This document shows positions 1 through 58,878 of a DNA stretch of 63,743 nt, piece by piece. Source of the DNA: Williamsia sp. 1138 (GTDB lineage Bacteria > Actinomycetota > Actinomycetes > Mycobacteriales > Mycobacteriaceae); NCBI RefSeq assembly GCF_002095435.2, contig NZ_MJEJ02000023.1:1-63743 (forward strand), in the 5' to 3' direction. The position numbers and the translations under genes are program-made. A model generated the notes under the pieces. The model worked only from the letters and a program-made list of their open reading frames with translations. It was not told where the DNA came from and searched no databases. Every line of letters starts with the position of its first letter. Within the stretch, counting starts at the first letter, position 1.

Positions 1-14
1 AAGTTGCTCCTATG

Positions 15-1070
15 TCAAGCGGCGGCTTGTTCGGTCGGTGCGGGGTGCGTGTGGGCGTCGGTGGTGAGTCGTTGGTAGACGGTGCGGATGAGTCGTCGTC
101 GCAGGCACCGTAGGGCTGAAGTTTTGGTGTCGTTGGCGGCGAGGCGGTTGCGGTAGTAGGTGTAGCCGTCGGAGTCTTCGAGGCGGATTTGGGTCAGGGC
201 GATGCGGTGCAGTGCGGTATTGAGCTGTCGGTTGCCGTGTCGGGGTAGTCGCACGCGGCCGGCGCTGTTGCCGGACCAGACGGGGATGGGTGCTGTGCCG
301 GCGTAGCTGGCGTAGGCGTCGGCGGAGCGGAAGCGGGAGATGCCGGCGGTTTCGCCGACGATTTTGCCGGCGGTCAGTTCGGCACAGCCGGGCAACTCGA
401 GCAAGGTCGGCACCAGTTGGCGTACTCGCTTGCCGATCTCGGTGGCGAGCTTGTTGATCCGGGCTGTCAGCGAGATGATGTCGTCGAGTTCCGCGCGGGC
501 GATGTCGGCGAGGAGGCTGGTGTGGTTCGCGAGATGGGTGGCGAGTATTTTTTGGTGCTTGTTCATGCTCAGCGACCGGGGTTTGGGAGCGTAGGCGGGA
601 TTGATCTCATGGACCCGCCACAGCAGTCGGTTGATTGACGCAGTGCGTTGGGCGACAGCGACTTCCCGGTAGTCGACGAGGAGCCGTAACTCGCGGGATT
701 GGGGGTCGGCGCCAGCGGCGGGCAGGTCCGGTTCGCGTAGTACCGCTCGCGCCACGGCCAGGGCGTCGATGGGATCTGACTTGCCGCGGGTGCGAGCGCT
801 GGAGCGGGCTTGGGCCATCAACTTGGTGGGTACGCGCACCGCGGTCTGGCCGGCGCCGAGCAGGTCGCGCTCGAGGCGGGTCGACATCTGCCGGCAGTCC
901 TCGATACCCCACACCAGATCGCCACCGAACTCGGTGAGTGCCCAGTTGATCGCTGTGTGGTGCCCTTCGGTGGTGGCCGCAGAGGTGAGGTGGCCTAGCT
1001 TCTTGCCGACGGAATCGACGGCGACGAATGTGTGAGTGGACTTGTGTACATCGACTCCAACAACAACCAT
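15..1070 (-). CDS. IS110-family transposase (DEDD recombinase)
   Basis: 351 residues. The N-terminal RuvC-like domain shows the DEDD pattern (Asp7, Glu57, Asp99 and Asp102 in KSDPID). The C-terminal Tnp_2 half carries the Ser-rich block SGNSAGRVRLPRHGNRQLN from about residue 266, which is where the catalytic serine of this family lies. The ATG at 1070 is chosen over upstream in-frame starts because a perfect AGGAGG (complement of 1079-1084) sits 8 bases before it and the protein then begins with the typical MVVVGVDVHK. The stop is 14 bases from the window edge, so the right end of the element is mostly outside. IS110 enzymes are guided by a bridge RNA from the non-coding end, and a candidate lies just upstream. 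The gene looks intact. Confidence 0.93.
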   Translation of the reverse strand: MVVVGVDVHKSTHTFVAVDSVGKKLGHLTSAATTEGHHTAINWALTEFGGDLVWGIEDCRQMSTRLERDLLGAGQTAVRVPTKLMAQARSSARTRGKSDPIDALAVARAVLREPDLPAAGADPQSRELRLLVDYREVAVAQRTASINRLLWRVHEINPAYAPKPRSLSMNKHQKILATHLANHTSLLADIARAELDDIISLTARINKLATEIGKRVRQLVPTLLELPGCAELTAGKIVGETAGISRFRSADAYASYAGTAPIPVWSGNSAGRVRLPRHGNRQLNTALHRIALTQIRLEDSDGYTYYRNRLAANDTKTSALRCLRRRLIRTVYQRLTTDAHTHPAPTEQAAA

Positions 1071-1180
1071 GGTGGTTGCCTCCTGATTCAGAAACAGGGA
1101 CAGGGACGGTTGGGCCGGCCGGTGGGCAATCCTCAGTTGGGGGCGGTGCCACGCTCCTATCAAGCCACATCGGTCGGTCC

Positions 1181-1275
1181 ATCACACCTGGTGTTGGCAC
1201 AACTTTTGGAGACCAGACCTCACCCTTTGATGGTGATGCCGGTAGGCCCATCAAGAGCCAAACACCAGGTGATCA
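1181..1275 (-). ncRNA. Candidate bridge RNA segment of the IS110 element
   Basis: The 267-base non-coding stretch upstream of the transposase contains a nested fold. The outer arms, 1185-1198 (CACCTGGTGTTGGC) and 1257-1271, pair over 14 bp with one bulge. They enclose an inner hairpin, 1227-1233 (TTGATGG) with 1248-1254, whose loop is 14 bases. IS110 elements of this layout are known to encode a bridge RNA with internal guide loops in the non-coding left end. The position and fold fit, but the RNA ends, guide loops and transcription are not shown by the sequence. Confidence 0.35.
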
Positions 1276-1320
1276 GGACCCAACCACCGCCAGAGCGGCA
1301 ACACAAGAGTCACACTGAGG

Positions 1321-1334
1321 CCCCATCATCGGGG
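1321..1334 (-). terminator. Short hairpin after the VOC gene
   Basis: CCCC-ATCATC-GGGG hairpin immediately downstream of the triple-VOC stop codon. The stem is only 4 bp and there is no U-tract, so it is a weak terminator candidate. It may also mark the edge of the IS110 insertion. Confidence 0.25.
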
Positions 1335-1337
1335 TTG

Positions 1338-2627
1338 CTAGTACTGGCCGAGGTAGAAGTGGGCACCCTGGTCGTCGAGGCATTCGGCGGAGATCGCGTA
1401 GGACTGCTGTTCGGGGCCGCTGATCACGGTGCCACCGCCGTCTCGAACTCGCTGCACCGCCACCTCGATGTCGTCGACGACCCACATCGGCACCGCGACC
1501 GAGCCTGTCTGGCCACCGGCGATACCGGTCATCGGATGGTTGTTCTCGACCTCCCAGCCGTCGTCCATCCTCCCGCCGCTGAAGGTCCATCCCAGGACGC
1601 TGCCGTAGAACTCCCGGAGCAGTGCGCTGTCGGGGGTGTAGTGCGTCATGTAGGTGAGCTCGCCGTGACCGGTGGCGTTGAGGGGTGGACGAGGATCGTC
1701 CACGGTTGGGCGATACACCGCGAAGGCGACGCCCTGATTGTCGACCGCATCCAGGAGCTCGCCGAAGGGGAACCGCTGCAGCTCATTCGGGGTGCCGCCG
1801 GCCGCGACGATGTCGGCGCGGGCCCGGTCGATGTCGTCGACCGCATAGGCGCACAACATTCCCTGACCGCTCTGGACCCCGTAGATCCCCAGCCTCTGGG
1901 AGAGGTTGGTGACCTGCCCGGTGGCTGCGTCGAACTGCCAGCCGAGTACCGACCCGTAAAAGGCCACCGCCCGATCCACGTCCGTGGTCCACAGCGAGCA
2001 GTATCCGAGGTCGCCGCGGCGGATCTGTTCTGGTGAATCATCTTTCACCGATTCGGCCGATACCGGTCCGGTCAGCATCCACCGGTGTCCGAAGGGGTCG
2101 ACCATGACGCCGGTGCGGGTGCCGTGGGCGTCGTACGGTTCGCGCTGGACTTCGGCACCGCCGTCGCGAGCGGACCGCAGCGCGGAGTCGGTATCGGGAA
2201 CGGGGAGCATCAGCGATACCGAGACAGACTGTGGTGCCGGTCCTTTGAGCCCCAATTCGGCGAACTCGCCCGCCAGGTAGATCACGCCGCCACCAATGAG
2301 GAGCTCGGCGTGCCCGATGCTGCCGTCGTCCATGAGAATGGGCTCGCCGCGCAGTTCGGCACCGAGGTGGGCGACGTACCAGTCGATCGCGGCGGCGGGA
2401 TCGGCGACGGTGAGGTACGGCAGGGCGCCGGGGCGCTCGACCGCCACGGAAGTTGCAGCAGTCGAGGTTTCGGGTAGTGCGTCGGTGGTCATGGTTACTC
2501 CTTCGGGTAGGTCGAGGCCGCGTTCGAGGCGGATGCGCAGACGGCGCGCGAAGTCGGCGTCGGGGGCCACCGGGACGTCCCCGACGGCCAGCGCCGTGAA
2601 CGGATCGAAGTCGTTGTGCGCGTTCAT
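1338..2627 (-). CDS. Triple-domain VOC (glyoxalase-fold) protein coupled to an ECF sigma factor
   Basis: 429 residues. After an N-terminal segment of about 45 residues (DPFTALAVGDVPVAPDADF, then ARRLRIRLERGL), three VOC modules follow, at roughly 65-165, 185-290 and 310-428. Modules 2 and 3 share the signature AFYGSVLGW / EFYGSVLGW. The start at 2627 overlaps the sigma-factor stop (ATGA), indicating translational coupling. In-frame ATGs further upstream lie inside the sigma gene and are rejected. VOC proteins bind metals or small ligands; substrate and activity are unknown. The N-terminal segment resembles extensions I associate with proteins encoded next to ECF sigma factors, so a sensor or anti-sigma role is possible but inferred. 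Confidence 0.85.
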   Translation of the reverse strand: MNAHNDFDPFTALAVGDVPVAPDADFARRLRIRLERGLDLPEGVTMTTDALPETSTAATSVAVERPGALPYLTVADPAAAIDWYVAHLGAELRGEPILMDDGSIGHAELLIGGGVIYLAGEFAELGLKGPAPQSVSVSLMLPVPDTDSALRSARDGGAEVQREPYDAHGTRTGVMVDPFGHRWMLTGPVSAESVKDDSPEQIRRGDLGYCSLWTTDVDRAVAFYGSVLGWQFDAATGQVTNLSQRLGIYGVQSGQGMLCAYAVDDIDRARADIVAAGGTPNELQRFPFGELLDAVDNQGVAFAVYRPTVDDPRPPLNATGHGELTYMTHYTPDSALLREFYGSVLGWTFSGGRMDDGWEVENNHPMTGIAGGQTGSVAVPMWVVDDIEVAVQRVRDGGGTVISGPEQQSYAISAECLDDQGAHFYLGQY

Positions 2628-3205
2628 CGCCGGCCTCCCTTCGCTGCGGATGTGGCTGGATCGGAGGGATAGGACGCGCGGAAGGCCCGCTTCGCCCTCG
2701 TGAGCAGTGCCTCGGTCGCGGTGACCGTGCGGTCGAGCAGTTCGGCGCACTGGGCGACGGTGCAGTCGTCGACATAGCGCAGGGTCAGCACTGCCCGGTG
2801 GGTGTCGGACAACCGAAGAAGTGTGTACTCGGCGAGCATGCGATCGAGATGTACGTCCCACAGGTCGTGGGCGGGACCGTCCGGTACCTCCTCGACCGGT
2901 GTCGGCGTGCGCTGCATGCGGCGCCAGTGGTCGGCCAGTTTGTGGCGCGCGATGCCGATGAGCCAGGGGATCGACGGATCGTGCGGGTCGTCGCTCCTGG
3001 CGTGGTCCATCGCGGCCAAGAACGTCTCTGACGTGAGGTCTTCGGCGAGGCTCTTGTCCCGGGTTCGGCGGATCAGATAGCCGTACACCGCAGGCAGGGC
3101 GTCGTCGTAGATCGCCAGCAGCGCCCGGCCACCGGGCGGCGCCGTGCCTCGCGATGAGTTTCCCGCTGTGCCGCTCACATATCTATCGTCGTCGGAGCCG
3201 GGCAT
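2624..3205 (-). CDS. ECF-type RNA polymerase sigma factor
   Basis: 193 residues. Region 2 spans about residues 30-100 (AEDLTSETFLAAMDH, then IPWLIGIARHKLADHWRR). Region 4 spans about 128-180 (LSDTHRAVLTLRYVDDCTV, then the helix-turn-helix AECAELL-type segment). There is no long C-terminal extension. It is the first gene of a two-gene unit with the triple-VOC protein, whose start overlaps its stop. The ATG at 3205 has no strong Shine-Dalgarno sequence; an in-frame GTG at 3175 is an alternative. The ECF group and regulon cannot be assigned from sequence alone. Confidence 0.88.
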   Translation of the reverse strand: MPGSDDDRYVSGTAGNSSRGTAPPGGRALLAIYDDALPAVYGYLIRRTRDKSLAEDLTSETFLAAMDHARSDDPHDPSIPWLIGIARHKLADHWRRMQRTPTPVEEVPDGPAHDLWDVHLDRMLAEYTLLRLSDTHRAVLTLRYVDDCTVAQCAELLDRTVTATEALLTRAKRAFRASYPSDPATSAAKGGRR

Positions 3206-3232
3206 TTTCCGACGCCCAAATCCGAAATCGAT

Positions 3233-4519
3233 TTACGACGGGGCCAGCATGGTGAGCGTGCTGCCCTCTTCGAGCACCAGATATCCGTCCACGACCTCCG
3301 CCTGACCACCGACGATCGACCGCTGCCAGGCAATGGAACCGTTGCGGACGTCGAACGCGGTGAGTTCTCCGCCGTTGCCGAAGACGGCGATGTCGCCACC
3401 CTGCCCGACGCACGACAAGTAGTCGATGTTGGCCGCCGGATTCATCAGATCGGGGCGGGCGAACCTGCCGAGTTGTTCACCGGACCGCAGGTCGAAGGCC
3501 GTTCGGGTGGCGTCCTTGAGGGCGAAGATCACCACCGACCCGCACGGGCGGGTGTTGACCTTGGACAGTTCGGGATCGGTGATCTGCCAGAGCCGCTGCG
3601 CGTCGGGGGGATCGAAGACCGCGTAGGTGCCCTGCGTCTGCATGATCTGGGCCGGTCCGGTCCCGGTGGTCACCGGGAGCACAGAGGTACCGGAGACGAG
3701 TTGCTGTTTGTCGTTGACCGAGGTGCGGGTGCCGTCGGCGCGGTAGAACTCGACGCGCTGCTCGTCGGTGCCGGTGAACTGCAGTGCGACACCCGAGGGG
3801 TAGATTTCCATGTCGCACGAATCGCACCCGATCCGGTCGATCCCCGTCGCAGGGTCGATGATGTGCTTGGAACCGTCCGAGGCGCTGATGGCCACGACGT
3901 CGTCCTGAACCTCGACCTTCGCCGCCGCGGCGAACGTCCGAGCCCAGATCTGACGTCCGTCCGGGGCGTTGCGGCTGACCTGGTAGCCCGAATCGTTGAC
4001 CCTCAGGAAGTCCGGACCGAATCCCGTCACCGCCCTGGTGTTCCTGATGTCGGATCGCCCGCGGAGTTCACCGGAGGTGAGGTCGGCGAGATAGAAACCG
4101 TCGGGCCGGTCGGTGAGGCTCAGTGCGCACCCCAGCTCTCCCTGCCCGTTGATCGCGCACGAGCCCAGCCCGGCGTCGATGGGCACATCCCACAGCCGTT
4201 CGCCGTTGCGGCGATCGATGGCCAGGTACGTCGTACCGAGACCGGACGGATACGCGATGAGCCAGATGTCGCCGAGGGTTCCGGCGACGACAGGGGTCGC
4301 ACCTTCGCCGTACGTGCGCATGTCGGTCAGGTCCAGGCTCCACTGTTCGGTGGGCTCACCCTGATAGGAGCGGAGTTGGCCGTTCGAGAAGTCGCCGGAT
4401 GTCGTCGTCGGGGTTCCCATCGAGAGAACGAGCCCGACGCTGATCACCATCGCGATCGAGAGGGTCAGTACAACGATCCCTATCCCGGGTGCGGACCGGC
4501 CTTTGAGCATGTCGTACAT
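3233..4519 (-). CDS. Membrane-anchored PQQ-like beta-propeller protein
   Basis: 428 residues from the chosen start. An N-terminal transmembrane segment lies at about residues 12-33 (GIVVLTLSIAMVISVGLVL), followed by an extracytoplasmic domain with blade-like repeats: AIDRRNGERLWDVP, ADLTSGELRGRS, DPATGIDRIG, DLRSGEQLGRFA and FDVRNGSIAWQR. These resemble PQQ-binding-like/BamB-type propellers, which usually act as scaffolds. The ATG at 4612 would add 31 residues and sits back-to-back with the divergent lipase start. The start at 4519 is preferred because the protein then begins shortly before the membrane helix, but no clear ribosome binding site decides it. The ligand is unknown. Confidence 0.75.
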   Translation of the reverse strand: MYDMLKGRSAPGIGIVVLTLSIAMVISVGLVLSMGTPTTTSGDFSNGQLRSYQGEPTEQWSLDLTDMRTYGEGATPVVAGTLGDIWLIAYPSGLGTTYLAIDRRNGERLWDVPIDAGLGSCAINGQGELGCALSLTDRPDGFYLADLTSGELRGRSDIRNTRAVTGFGPDFLRVNDSGYQVSRNAPDGRQIWARTFAAAAKVEVQDDVVAISASDGSKHIIDPATGIDRIGCDSCDMEIYPSGVALQFTGTDEQRVEFYRADGTRTSVNDKQQLVSGTSVLPVTTGTGPAQIMQTQGTYAVFDPPDAQRLWQITDPELSKVNTRPCGSVVIFALKDATRTAFDLRSGEQLGRFARPDLMNPAANIDYLSCVGQGGDIAVFGNGGELTAFDVRNGSIAWQRSIVGGQAEVVDGYLVLEEGSTLTMLAPS

Positions 4520-4600
4520 CCAACCACGGGGGACACGCCCCGAACTCGGCCGCCACGGTCGGTCGGAGCAGACGTTCTCCAGCCGAACTGGACGACCGTT

Positions 4601-4613
4601 TAGTCTGGCCATG
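4601..4613 (+). promoter_or_regulatory. Leaderless-type -10 element of the first lipase
   Basis: TAGTCT at 4601-4606 lies exactly 12 to 7 bases before the GTG start at 4613. This is the TANNNT spacing typical of actinobacterial leaderless mRNAs, where transcription starts at the first base of the start codon. No Shine-Dalgarno precedes that GTG, which agrees. Confidence 0.6.
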
Positions 4614-5632
4614 TGTCAAACAATGTGGTGGGGCGTCTGCTCGGAGACGCCATGACCGTCCCGCTCCGCGTGGGAGGCATGCTGGGTGTGCGTGCCAAGC
4701 TCGGCCCGCGTGCCCTTCGGGTCGATCCCGGCGTCGCGAACCCGGCTCCCGCGCTCACCGAGCACGACCGACGCAAGGTCGCGTACAACTTCTTCTCGGG
4801 CATACCGTTCGAACTACGCAACCCTGGCGGTGATCTGCCCGGTGCAAATGAGTGGCATCGTGCGCCGTCGGCAGATCATCCACATCCGGTGATCCTGGTG
4901 CACGGCACCGGTGGTGGTGCCCAGACCAATTGGGGCACCTATGTGCCGCTGCTCAGCAACGAGGGTTTCTCGGTGTTCTCGTTGACCTACGGTGCGATCG
5001 CCGGGGTGCCGTGGCCGTTGTCGGCCATCGGTGGAATGGCCAAGATCGAGGACAGTGCCAAAGAGTTCGGCGTGTTCGTGGAGCGGGTGCTCGAGGCGAC
5101 CGGCGCCGCCCAGGTCGACGTGGTCGGGCACTCGCAGGGGACTTTGATGCCGAACTACTGGGCGAAGTGCCTCGGTGGCGCGGAACTGATCCGTAAGTAC
5201 GTCTCGCTGGCGCCGATGTGGCAGGGGACTTCGGCGTTCGCCGGGGTGATGAGCCGTATCAATCTGCCCCTCGGCCTCGACCCCACCCGCATCCTGCCGT
5301 GCTACTCGGCCGCCCAGATGATGGCGGGATCGGAGTTCATCGCCGAGATGCACGCCGACGGCGGTCCGTATGTTCCCGGCATCGACTACATCAACATCTC
5401 CACCCGGTACGACGAGTTCGTGGTGCCGTACACCAGCGGGCAGCTGCCCGGTGGGCCCGACGCCACCGTCACCAACATTGTTGTGCAGGAAAATTGTTCA
5501 CATGATTACAGTGATCACCTGGCCATCTGCGGATCGCAGCGGGCCGCGCTGTGTGTGCTGAACGCACTCGATGACCGAGCAGATCCGAGGGATGTCCCAT
5601 GTATGTTCGTTCCGCCGTTCTTCGGTTCCTGA
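4613..5632 (+). CDS. Lipase/esterase of the lipase class 2 alpha/beta-hydrolase type
   Basis: 339 residues. The oxyanion motif HGTGGG lies near residue 98 and the nucleophile elbow GHSQG at 172-176 (Ser174). Candidate acid and base residues are in STRYDEFVVPY and in NCSHDYSDHLA near the C-terminus. This layout matches lipase class 2 proteins, which hydrolyse ester bonds. No signal peptide is evident, unlike its downstream paralogue. The GTG start is supported by the -10 element at leaderless spacing; an internal ATG at 4652 with GGAGAC upstream is the alternative. The 3' end overlaps the next gene by 34 bases, suggesting one transcript. The natural substrate is unknown. Confidence 0.85.
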   Translation: MSNNVVGRLLGDAMTVPLRVGGMLGVRAKLGPRALRVDPGVANPAPALTEHDRRKVAYNFFSGIPFELRNPGGDLPGANEWHRAPSADHPHPVILVHGTGGGAQTNWGTYVPLLSNEGFSVFSLTYGAIAGVPWPLSAIGGMAKIEDSAKEFGVFVERVLEATGAAQVDVVGHSQGTLMPNYWAKCLGGAELIRKYVSLAPMWQGTSAFAGVMSRINLPLGLDPTRILPCYSAAQMMAGSEFIAEMHADGGPYVPGIDYINISTRYDEFVVPYTSGQLPGGPDATVTNIVVQENCSHDYSDHLAICGSQRAALCVLNALDDRADPRDVPCMFVPPFFGS

Positions 5633-6540
5633 GCTGGTCGGCGCTTGCTCTGCTGTCGCTGACCGCGCTGCCGGCCACCGCGGGTGCGCAACCGGTGAGC
5701 CATGACTTCTTCGACGGTGCCCGAGCCGAGGTGGCGAACCCCGGTGGTTCGTACCCCGGTTCCAATGACTTTTCGTGCCGTCCATCCATGAAACACCCGA
5801 ATCCTGTTGTGCTGGTGCACGGTACCGGCGGAAATCGTCAGACCAACTGGGCGACGATGATCCCGGCGCTGCGAAACGAGGGATACTGCGTGTTCGCGCT
5901 GACCTATGGCACGCTGTCCGGAACCGTCTGGCCGGTCAGTGGTTTCGGCGGCTTGACCCGGATGGAGGACAGCGCGGAGCAGCTCGCCTCATTCATCGCG
6001 CGGGTGCGCCAGGGGACCGGAGCCGCGCGGGTCGACCTGGTCGGTCATTCGGAGGGCACCCTGATGCCGACCTACTACCTCAAATACCTCGGCGGGGCGC
6101 AGTACGTCGATCGCTATGTCTCCCTGGCACCGTATTGGAAGGGCCAGGACCAGGCTGCGTATCTGCAGCTGGAGGCGATGGCAATGGCTTTCGGGTTCGA
6201 CCCGGGCCAGGTGCTGCCGTGTCCGGAATGCGGGCAGGAGAACTATGGCAGTCCGTTCATGCAGCAGATCAATTCGGGTGGTTCGCCATACGTTCCGGGC
6301 ATTTCCTACACCAATGTGATGACGAGGTACGACGGTATCGTCGAGCCGTGGACCGACGGGTTCGTGCCCGGCCCGGGCGCGAGGAACATCGTGTTGCAGG
6401 ACACCTGCGCGGCAGACCGGTCTGACCACCTCTCGATCGTGTCCTCGCCGCGAACGGTGGCCATAGTGCTGGGTGCGCTCGATCCGGCAGCCGCGCCGGC
6501 GGTGCCCTGCGTGCCGGTGGCTCCTGGGCTCGGTCTGTAG
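5599..6540 (+). CDS. Secreted lipase/esterase, paralogue of the preceding gene
   Basis: 313 residues with a clear signal peptide: basic start, hydrophobic core SALALLSLTALPATA and likely cleavage after AGA at about residue 30. The mature part aligns closely with the preceding lipase: HGTGGNRQTNW, the elbow GHSEG, TRYDGIVEPWTDG, and DTCAADRSDHLS carrying the likely catalytic His. Extra cysteines (CPECGQ) could form disulfides after export. The start overlaps the upstream gene by 34 bases, with GAGG before the ATG. The pair looks like a tandem duplication in which one copy is exported and the other is not. It converges tightly on the AraC gene, 3 bases away. Confidence 0.87.
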   Translation: MYVRSAVLRFLSWSALALLSLTALPATAGAQPVSHDFFDGARAEVANPGGSYPGSNDFSCRPSMKHPNPVVLVHGTGGNRQTNWATMIPALRNEGYCVFALTYGTLSGTVWPVSGFGGLTRMEDSAEQLASFIARVRQGTGAARVDLVGHSEGTLMPTYYLKYLGGAQYVDRYVSLAPYWKGQDQAAYLQLEAMAMAFGFDPGQVLPCPECGQENYGSPFMQQINSGGSPYVPGISYTNVMTRYDGIVEPWTDGFVPGPGARNIVLQDTCAADRSDHLSIVSSPRTVAIVLGALDPAAAPAVPCVPVAPGLGL

Positions 6541-58782: not shown

Positions 58783-58801
58783 CTGCCCCCGGCCTCCCGA
58801 T

Positions 58802-58856
58802 GATGGGTCGTTCTGGCGAACGAAAGCCCAGGTGGGCTCCGCCAAAACGACCCATT
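58802..58856. repeat. Intergenic hairpin repeat, class 2, copy 2
   Basis: Arms 58802-58818 and 58840-58856 pair at 15 of 17 positions. An inner 6-bp hairpin AGCCCA-GG-TGGGCT lies at 58825-58838, giving a two-tier stem. It follows the MFS stop by 19 bases and precedes the KstR box. Confidence 0.7.
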
Positions 58857-58878
58857 TTCGGAGGTCCGGGAACTAGAG

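What the first reader, a model, noticed from the sequence alone, without database searches (positions are those of the whole stretch)
1071..1337. Bridge-RNA-like nested fold in the IS110 left end
The non-coding region upstream of an intact IS110 transposase contains a 14-bp long-range stem (1185-1198 with 1257-1271) enclosing a hairpin (1227-1233 with 1248-1254). IS110 elements with this gene order are known to express a programmable bridge RNA from the non-coding left end. The sequence shows the fold; the guide function is inferred. If confirmed, it adds a recombinase/guide pair from a high-GC actinobacterium.
Basis: partly seen in the sequence, partly recalled or inferred. Interest (0 to 1): 0.7.

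Follow-up and report, generated by a model that had tools for sequence, protein, structure and literature searches.

The report
RNA-guided jumping gene targeting DNA palindromes
The stretch upstream of this jumping gene's enzyme very probably encodes a guide RNA, one loop of which matches the repeated palindromes the element inserts into and the other its own ends, making it a well-supported new case of a recently discovered RNA-guided recombination system.

Summary
Window 4-1317 (minus strand) is an IS110-group element: a 351-aa transposase with a 247-bp left end that carries a bridge-RNA sequence. A covariance model built only from 35 relatives hits it full length (135 bits, E 1.9e-31), and compensatory changes support the long stem. 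Two sister genomes hold the uninterrupted site: insertion was scarless around a CT core in a REP-like palindrome. Half-sites occur at 35 places in this genome; 10 of 15 palindromes examined lie between convergent genes. Over 76 insertion sites of this element and relatives, guides fit their own flanks far better than shuffled guides. Corrections: the inner hairpin pairs the left guide with a private apical insertion and is not conserved; 1320-1337 is host DNA. Less ordinary: the left-guide match is often displaced 1-2 nt from the core (1 nt at 4 of 5 own sites), and one class of relatives inserts at leaderless start sites (start codon at a fixed position in 40 of 40). No transcript was tested.

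The parts
4..1317 (-). IS110-group element (1314 bp) between two copies of the CT core
   Evidence: empty site in sister genomes against both junctions; copies with 100% identity in the same genome
15..1070 (-). transposase, 351 aa, ATG start
   Evidence: PF01548 E 1.2e-22 and PF02371 E 3.9e-19, both above cut-off; related to ISCro4 (9t56) and IS621 (8wt6) recombinases
1318..1319 (-). left copy of the core dinucleotide CT
   Evidence: shared between the empty site and both junctions
2..3 (-). right copy of the core dinucleotide CT; base 1 is the first base of the right target half (the contig ends here and the right flank lies on G000:C18)
1320..1332 (-). left half-arm CCGATGATGGGGC of the target palindrome (host DNA)
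   Evidence: identical arm in the uninterrupted palindromes of L217 and L218
13..18 (-). TTGACA, proposed -35 box of the circle-junction promoter; overlaps the transposase stop codon
   Evidence: sequence; inference by analogy with IS621 (PMC11208160, section 5 read)
1306..1311 (-). GACTCT, proposed -10 box, 17 nt from TTGACA once the ends are joined
   Evidence: sequence; the A at place 2 and the T at place 6 are invariant in 36 aligned left ends
1286..1299 (-). 5' stem-loop
   Evidence: helix 1, 100% of cells paired, 1 of 5 pairs with a compensatory change
1257..1271 (-).
   Evidence: helix 3
1185..1198 (-). 3' arm of the same stem
   Evidence: helix 3
1244..1254 (-). left target guide UUGAUGGGC-CU
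   Evidence: 5 or 6 of its first 7 nt match each of 5 own left flanks; on 71 foreign flanks 64 score 4 or less and 7 score 5
1212..1243 (-). apical hairpin of the target-binding loop, enlarged here (32 nt; 11-25 in 35 relatives)
   Evidence: conserved foot = helix 4
1203..1211 (-). right target guide CUCCAAA-AG (reverse complement CTTTTGGAG; target CT-TTTGGCG)
   Evidence: right flanks of the own copies
1153..1161 (-). left donor guide GAUAGGAGC (8 nt as in the right end ATAGGAGC at 6-13; two further bases AA precede the core)
   Evidence: invariant in 36 sequences
1132..1137 (-). right donor guide ACUGAG (reverse complement CTCAGT = core plus left end)
1120..1300 (-). extent of the bridge RNA model match
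   Evidence: cmsearch with model R1, built without this sequence: 135.3 bits, E 1.9e-31
58797..58861 (+). an unoccupied copy of the target palindrome family in the same window
   Evidence: half-site at 58799-58818 with 3 mismatches, sequence

Best explanation
The left end encodes an IS110-group bridge RNA, read on the minus strand. On excision the joined ends form a promoter (TTGACA in the right end, GACTCT in the left end, 17 nt apart) that makes the RNA. Its first loop pairs with the two strands of a palindrome half-site (left guide to GATGATGGGGC-CT, right guide to CT-TTTGGCG); its second loop pairs with the element's own joined ends (ATAGGAGC..CT..CAGT). The transposase bound to this RNA then swaps strands at the CT core, so the element enters one arm of a REP-like palindrome without target duplication. 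Shown here: element ends, empty site, conserved fold, guide-target and guide-donor matches, covariation over relatives. Inferred: transcription, promoter, binding, catalysis.
For: Model from 35 relatives finds the window at E 1.9e-31. Compensatory changes. Uninterrupted palindrome at the same locus in L217 and L218, with the window's left junction and C18's right junction sharing exactly CT. Two further left/right flank pairs found by synteny, C5/C15 and C8/C19. 76 insertion sites, 37 left guides: 5.87 of 7 matches against 3.50 when guides are shuffled (highest of 1000 shuffles 3.95); right guides 4.16 of 6 against 2.62 (highest 2.99), n = 68. The result holds inside each class: 40 sites 5.90 against 4.44 (max 4.90), 28 sites 5.75 against 3.47 (max 4.43). 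Transposase domains.
Against: Single-sequence folding is unremarkable (z -0.89), and the free RNA is predicted to pair left guide with right guide. In strict register with the core the own left guide matches only 3.4 of 7 on average over 5 sites; a 1-nt bulge must be allowed at 4 of 5. No Rfam family matched (one sub-threshold hit elsewhere). Sequence comparison with solved recombinases is weak in the N-terminal half (i-Evalue 1.6). A weak second model hit lies on the other strand of the same place (16.4 bits, E 0.012), as expected of a near-palindrome.
Confidence: 0.94

Rival explanations
1. The stem is a DNA feature: a subterminal inverted repeat bound by the transposase, with no guide RNA.
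For: Long inverted arms near an end; the arms are well conserved.
Against: The stem lies about 46-130 bp inside the end and has no partner at the other end; the loop between the arms changes with the target, which a binding site would not; the donor loop matches both ends.
Confidence: 0.03
2. The fold is a leader or attenuator of the transposase mRNA only, and insertion into palindromes reflects recognition of DNA structure (cruciform) by the protein.
For: The left end lies upstream of the transposase on the same strand, and 4 of 5 own insertions are in palindromes.
Against: The fifth own insertion (C5/C15) is not in such a palindrome yet fits the left guide in register (CTGATGGAC-CT); relatives insert at start codons without palindromes but in accord with their guides.
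Confidence: 0.02
3. It is a bridge RNA, but with the reader's inner hairpin as a working part, the apical loop masking the left guide.
For: 7 nt of perfect complementarity between UUGAUGG and CCAUCAA.
Against: The apical loop is private to this element; the forced structure is about 4 kcal/mol worse than the free optimum; no other element compared shows 5 nt or more of such complementarity.
Confidence: 0.06

Closest known systems
IS621 bridge recombinase (PMC11208160 sections 5, 6, 7, 12 read; PMC11208158 passages)
   Same: Gene order with the RNA in the left end, 5' stem-loop plus two internal loops, LTG/RTG and LDG/RDG in that order, CT core, junction promoter, insertion into REP-like palindromes.
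   Different: Only remote protein similarity. The left-guide match is set back from the core by 1 nt at 4 of 5 own sites, and the donor-guide match by 2 nt in the whole clade, whereas in IS621 the core belongs to each pairing (PMC11208160 section 7). Enlarged apical hairpin. Host is an actinobacterium.
ISCro4 recombinase (PDB 9t56)
   Same: Closest solved chain by sequence, E 1.3e-9.
   Different: Its RNA and target were not compared here.
seekRNA of IS110 and IS1111 elements (PMC11187229, abstract and passages)
   Same: Same system under another name; for IS110-type the non-coding region is upstream of the transposase, as here.
   Different: No actinobacterial member was seen in the passages shown.
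IS900 (PMC8141618, passages)
   Same: IS110 family; start-codon-linked target motif CATGNNNNNNTCTCCTT; a precedent for the relatives found here that insert in front of start codons.
   Different: That motif reads as a Shine-Dalgarno sequence plus start codon; the relatives here use a -10-like hexamer plus start codon. The window's element itself targets a palindrome.

Membership tests
IS110-group insertion sequence | DEDD (RuvC-like) domain PF01548 plus PF02371 domain | tested here: met
   both above cut-off
IS110-group insertion sequence | catalytic residues: D7, D99, D102 and S266 line up with ISCro4; E57 assigned by motif only | tested here: inconclusive
   the N-terminal alignment is weak and does not line up the glutamate
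IS110-group insertion sequence | non-coding region upstream of the transposase (left end longer than right end) | tested here: met
   left end 247 bp, right end 11 bp
IS110-group insertion sequence | scarless insertion around a short core, no target duplication beyond it | tested here: met
   junctions and empty site share exactly CT
bridge RNA | conserved fold with target and donor internal loops | tested here: met
bridge RNA | target-loop guides match the insertion target and covary with it | tested here: met
   with permutations also inside each class
bridge RNA | left guide contiguous with the core, as in IS621 | tested here: not met
   1 nt set back at 4 of 5 own sites; 49 of 76 sites of the clade at 1 nt or more. 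Affects the detail, not the membership
bridge RNA | donor-loop guides match the joined ends | tested here: met
   AUAGGAGC and ACUGAG against the right and left ends; no covariation test was possible, as these are nearly invariant
bridge RNA | promoter formed at the joined ends; transcript; binding to the transposase; RNA-dependent recombination | not testable with these tools
   boxes seen in sequence only
REP-like palindromes as target | many copies of an intergenic palindrome | tested here: met
   48 half-sites at 35 places with up to 3 mismatches, 0 for the reversed control pattern; present in 9 of 9 genomes of the genus

The most novel reading that the evidence does not exclude
In this actinobacterial branch of IS110 the right guide fixes the crossover point while the left guide works with slack (0 to about 3 nt between its match and the core), a looser reading than in IS621. 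That slack let one class of relatives become hunters of leaderless genes: the left guide reads the -10 hexamer, the right guide the start codon; the insertion lands between them, uses the host promoter for its own left end and hands the host gene a Shine-Dalgarno sequence (AGGAG, 6 nt before the start codon) carried in the right end.
Probability: 0.5. Interest if true: 0.75.

Novelty: new member of a known kind. Interest (0 to 1): 0.55.

Why it matters
It adds a recombinase/guide pair from a high-GC actinobacterium whose ends, core, guides and natural target are all read from sequence, ready for a direct test in a laboratory strain. The slack between left guide and core is a testable departure from the IS621 rules and would matter for predicting off-target sites of bridge recombinases. 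The related class that inserts between a -10 hexamer and a leaderless start codon, in front of genes such as dcd and pgi, suggests how an RNA guide can choose sites that spare the host.

Tried and rejected
Folding one sequence and stem length alone do not establish the finding. Rfam gave no bridge RNA family in window 1-6000. The same-genus transposases are only about 30% identical and were used as outgroups only. An early idea that the element ends near 1328-1337 was dropped after comparing flanks. The idea that the inner hairpin masks the left guide was kept only as a minor rival. The tree (42 rows; 3 short reads left out) leaves the window's element on a long, unresolved branch, so its kinship to either target class is open. 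A possible handshake pairing between the bases after the right guide and the two bases before the donor core was seen by eye, fits some elements and not others, and was not counted.

Rows dropped before counts: one search kept 81 left ends (3 without a found left end and 1 truncated, plus 9 without the donor-guide string, were dropped: 13 in all); 43 remained after removing near-copies; 36 of 43 went into A1 (7 with longer or deviant 5' regions left out) and 35 into A2 and model R1. Searches used 76 of 85 rows (2 with too short a left flank, 7 repeats of a site); 21 of 30 palindrome loci matched the pattern used (15 different palindromes, 10 between convergent reading frames, the others same-direction or unclear). 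In one search, 6 of the 40 start codons open reading frames under 80 aa, and 3 of 40 lack TANNNT at 4-9 nt.

Full report
What was claimed and what is there. The transposase is on the minus strand (15-1070, 351 aa, PF01548 and PF02371). One sequence alone would not carry the claim: z -0.89 against shuffles, and stems of similar length turn up in 2 of 60 shuffles.

Ends and target. Ten matches at 100% identity lie in the same genome, five with a left flank and five with a right flank, so I count five copies at most. Left flanks end in CT before CAGTG; right flanks begin with CT after AGGAGCAA. Four of five left flanks and four of five right flanks are halves of one palindrome family. At the window's locus, sister genomes L217 (G007) and L218 (G005) hold the uninterrupted palindrome CCGATGATGGGGC-CT-TTTGGCGAGC...; the window supplies its left half and contig C18 (L007) the rest, and both share exactly CT. 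Of 8 sister genomes, L220 has a variant palindrome there and the other five have none. Synteny also pairs C5 with C15 and C8 with C19; two copies remain unpaired. The C5/C15 site is not a palindrome of this family, yet it reads CTGATGGAC-CT and fits the left guide in register.

The target family. The half-site occurs 48 times with up to 3 mismatches (0 for the reversed control), at 35 places, 13 of them with both arms found, and in 9 of 9 genomes of the genus, 10 to 48 half-sites each. Of 15 different palindromes that could be parsed, 10 sit between convergent reading frames, close behind both stop codons; insertion there should do little harm (inference).

The RNA. Left ends of relatives (50-72% identical transposases) align well (36 sequences). 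RNAalifold and pair counts give a 5' stem-loop, a first long stem with an internal loop, and a second stem with an internal loop. Over the structure, 99.1% of cells pair, 11 pairs change on both sides (3.0 in shuffles, 0 of 500 as high), and sliding the partners by 1-3 columns drops pairing to 27-49%. A model built without the window's sequence (R1, 35 relatives) finds it over all 166 positions with 135.3 bits, E 1.9e-31, finds all ten matches in the genome, and gives only weak partial hits in one other genome of the genus.

The guides. In the first loop UUGAUGGGC-CU (1254-1244) resembles the left target and CUCCAAA-AG (1211-1203) is the reverse complement of CT-TTTGGAG (target CT-TTTGGCG). 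In the second loop AUAGGAGC matches the right end and ACUGAG the left end. Across 76 insertion sites with 37 left guides, the first 7 guide bases match their own flank at 5.87 of 7, against 3.50 with shuffled guides (highest of 1000: 3.95); right guides 4.16 of 6 against 2.62 (highest 2.99; 68 sites). Shuffling only within a class leaves the result: start-site class 5.90 against 4.44 (max 4.90; 40 sites), the other class 5.75 against 3.47 (max 4.43; 28 sites), 0 of 1000 as high in both. The window's guide scores 6, 6, 6, 5, 6 on its own five flanks and at most 5 on 71 foreign ones. In these tests observed and shuffled pairs alike could choose the best of five offsets.

Slack of the left guide. 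The best offset between left-guide match and core is 0 at 27 sites, 1 at 30, 2 at 15, 3 at 3 and 4 at 1. For the window's element it is 1 at four sites and 0 at one; in strict register its mean is 3.4 of 7, and 1.6 of 7 in the start-site class, about chance. In the paper on IS621 the core is part of each pairing (PMC11208160 section 7). Either the heteroduplex bulges or fewer left bases pair than thought; sequence cannot say.

The inner hairpin. It pairs guide bases 1-7 with CCAUCAA in an apical loop of 32 nt; the 35 relatives have 11-25 nt there. It is not favoured and not shared. In the free RNA the left guide is predicted to pair with the right guide instead.

Promoter. Joining the ends gives TTGACA-17 nt-GACTCT. 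The A and T at places 2 and 6 of the -10 box are invariant in 36 left ends. TTGACA was part of the string used to find right ends, so its conservation was not counted independently. IS621 forms such a promoter on excision (PMC11208160 section 5).

A sister class. Relatives whose right end reads AGGAGAAA insert in front of start codons: 40 of 40 sites have ATG (28) or GTG (12) at one fixed position, against 0 of 28 sites for relatives ending AGGAGCWA; 37 of 40 have TANNNT 5-9 nt upstream, mostly 6-7 nt; 34 of 40 open a frame of 80 aa or more or one open to the end of the locus. Empty sites were seen for dcd (L255 GATAGGCTCGTCGC-GTG; occupied in L176 and L258) and pgi (L226; occupied in L100/L225). 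That these genes are leaderless is inferred from the -10 spacing. I found no paper joining bridge RNA with leaderless genes in the held library (0 papers; 5 unrelated papers on IS110 + leaderless; 3 listed, not read). IS900 is a near precedent (PMC8141618 passages). The class label changes several times on the tree.

Host. Its genus lies in a family that, by matching contigs, also holds Mycobacterium, Gordonia and Dietzia, so 'high-GC actinobacterium' stands.

Verdict. A bridge RNA with its target and donor loops, confidence 0.94: a new member of a known kind, with a looser left guide than the type element and kin that pick leaderless start sites.

Noticed in passing
40 insertion sites among L071-L191, e.g. 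L176, L100, L104: Relatives with right end AGGAGAAA insert between a TANNNT hexamer and a start codon (40 of 40 have ATG/GTG at a fixed position) and place AGGAG 6 nt before it.
   Followed up: partly
L101 (G196:C1:3902488), upstream 620 bases: A tandem left end: the first copy is cut within its own left-guide sequence (TTAGATTGGCTGCC|T-CAGTG), as if the element had attacked the DNA that encodes its own guide and one copy was then lost by recombination.
   Followed up: partly
window 58797-58861: An unoccupied member of the target palindrome family lies in the same window, between same-direction reading frames.
   Followed up: no
L258 (G441) and L176: Two different genomes carry an insertion in front of the same gene, dcd, so this start site is a repeated target.
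   Followed up: no
G001:C15 (L286, L288): A remote element (about 33% identical transposase) in the same genus, two copies, with a partial match to the RNA model (36.6 bits).
   Followed up: no
window 1-18: The contig breaks exactly at the element's right end, and the transposase stop codon lies inside the TTGACA box.
   Followed up: yes
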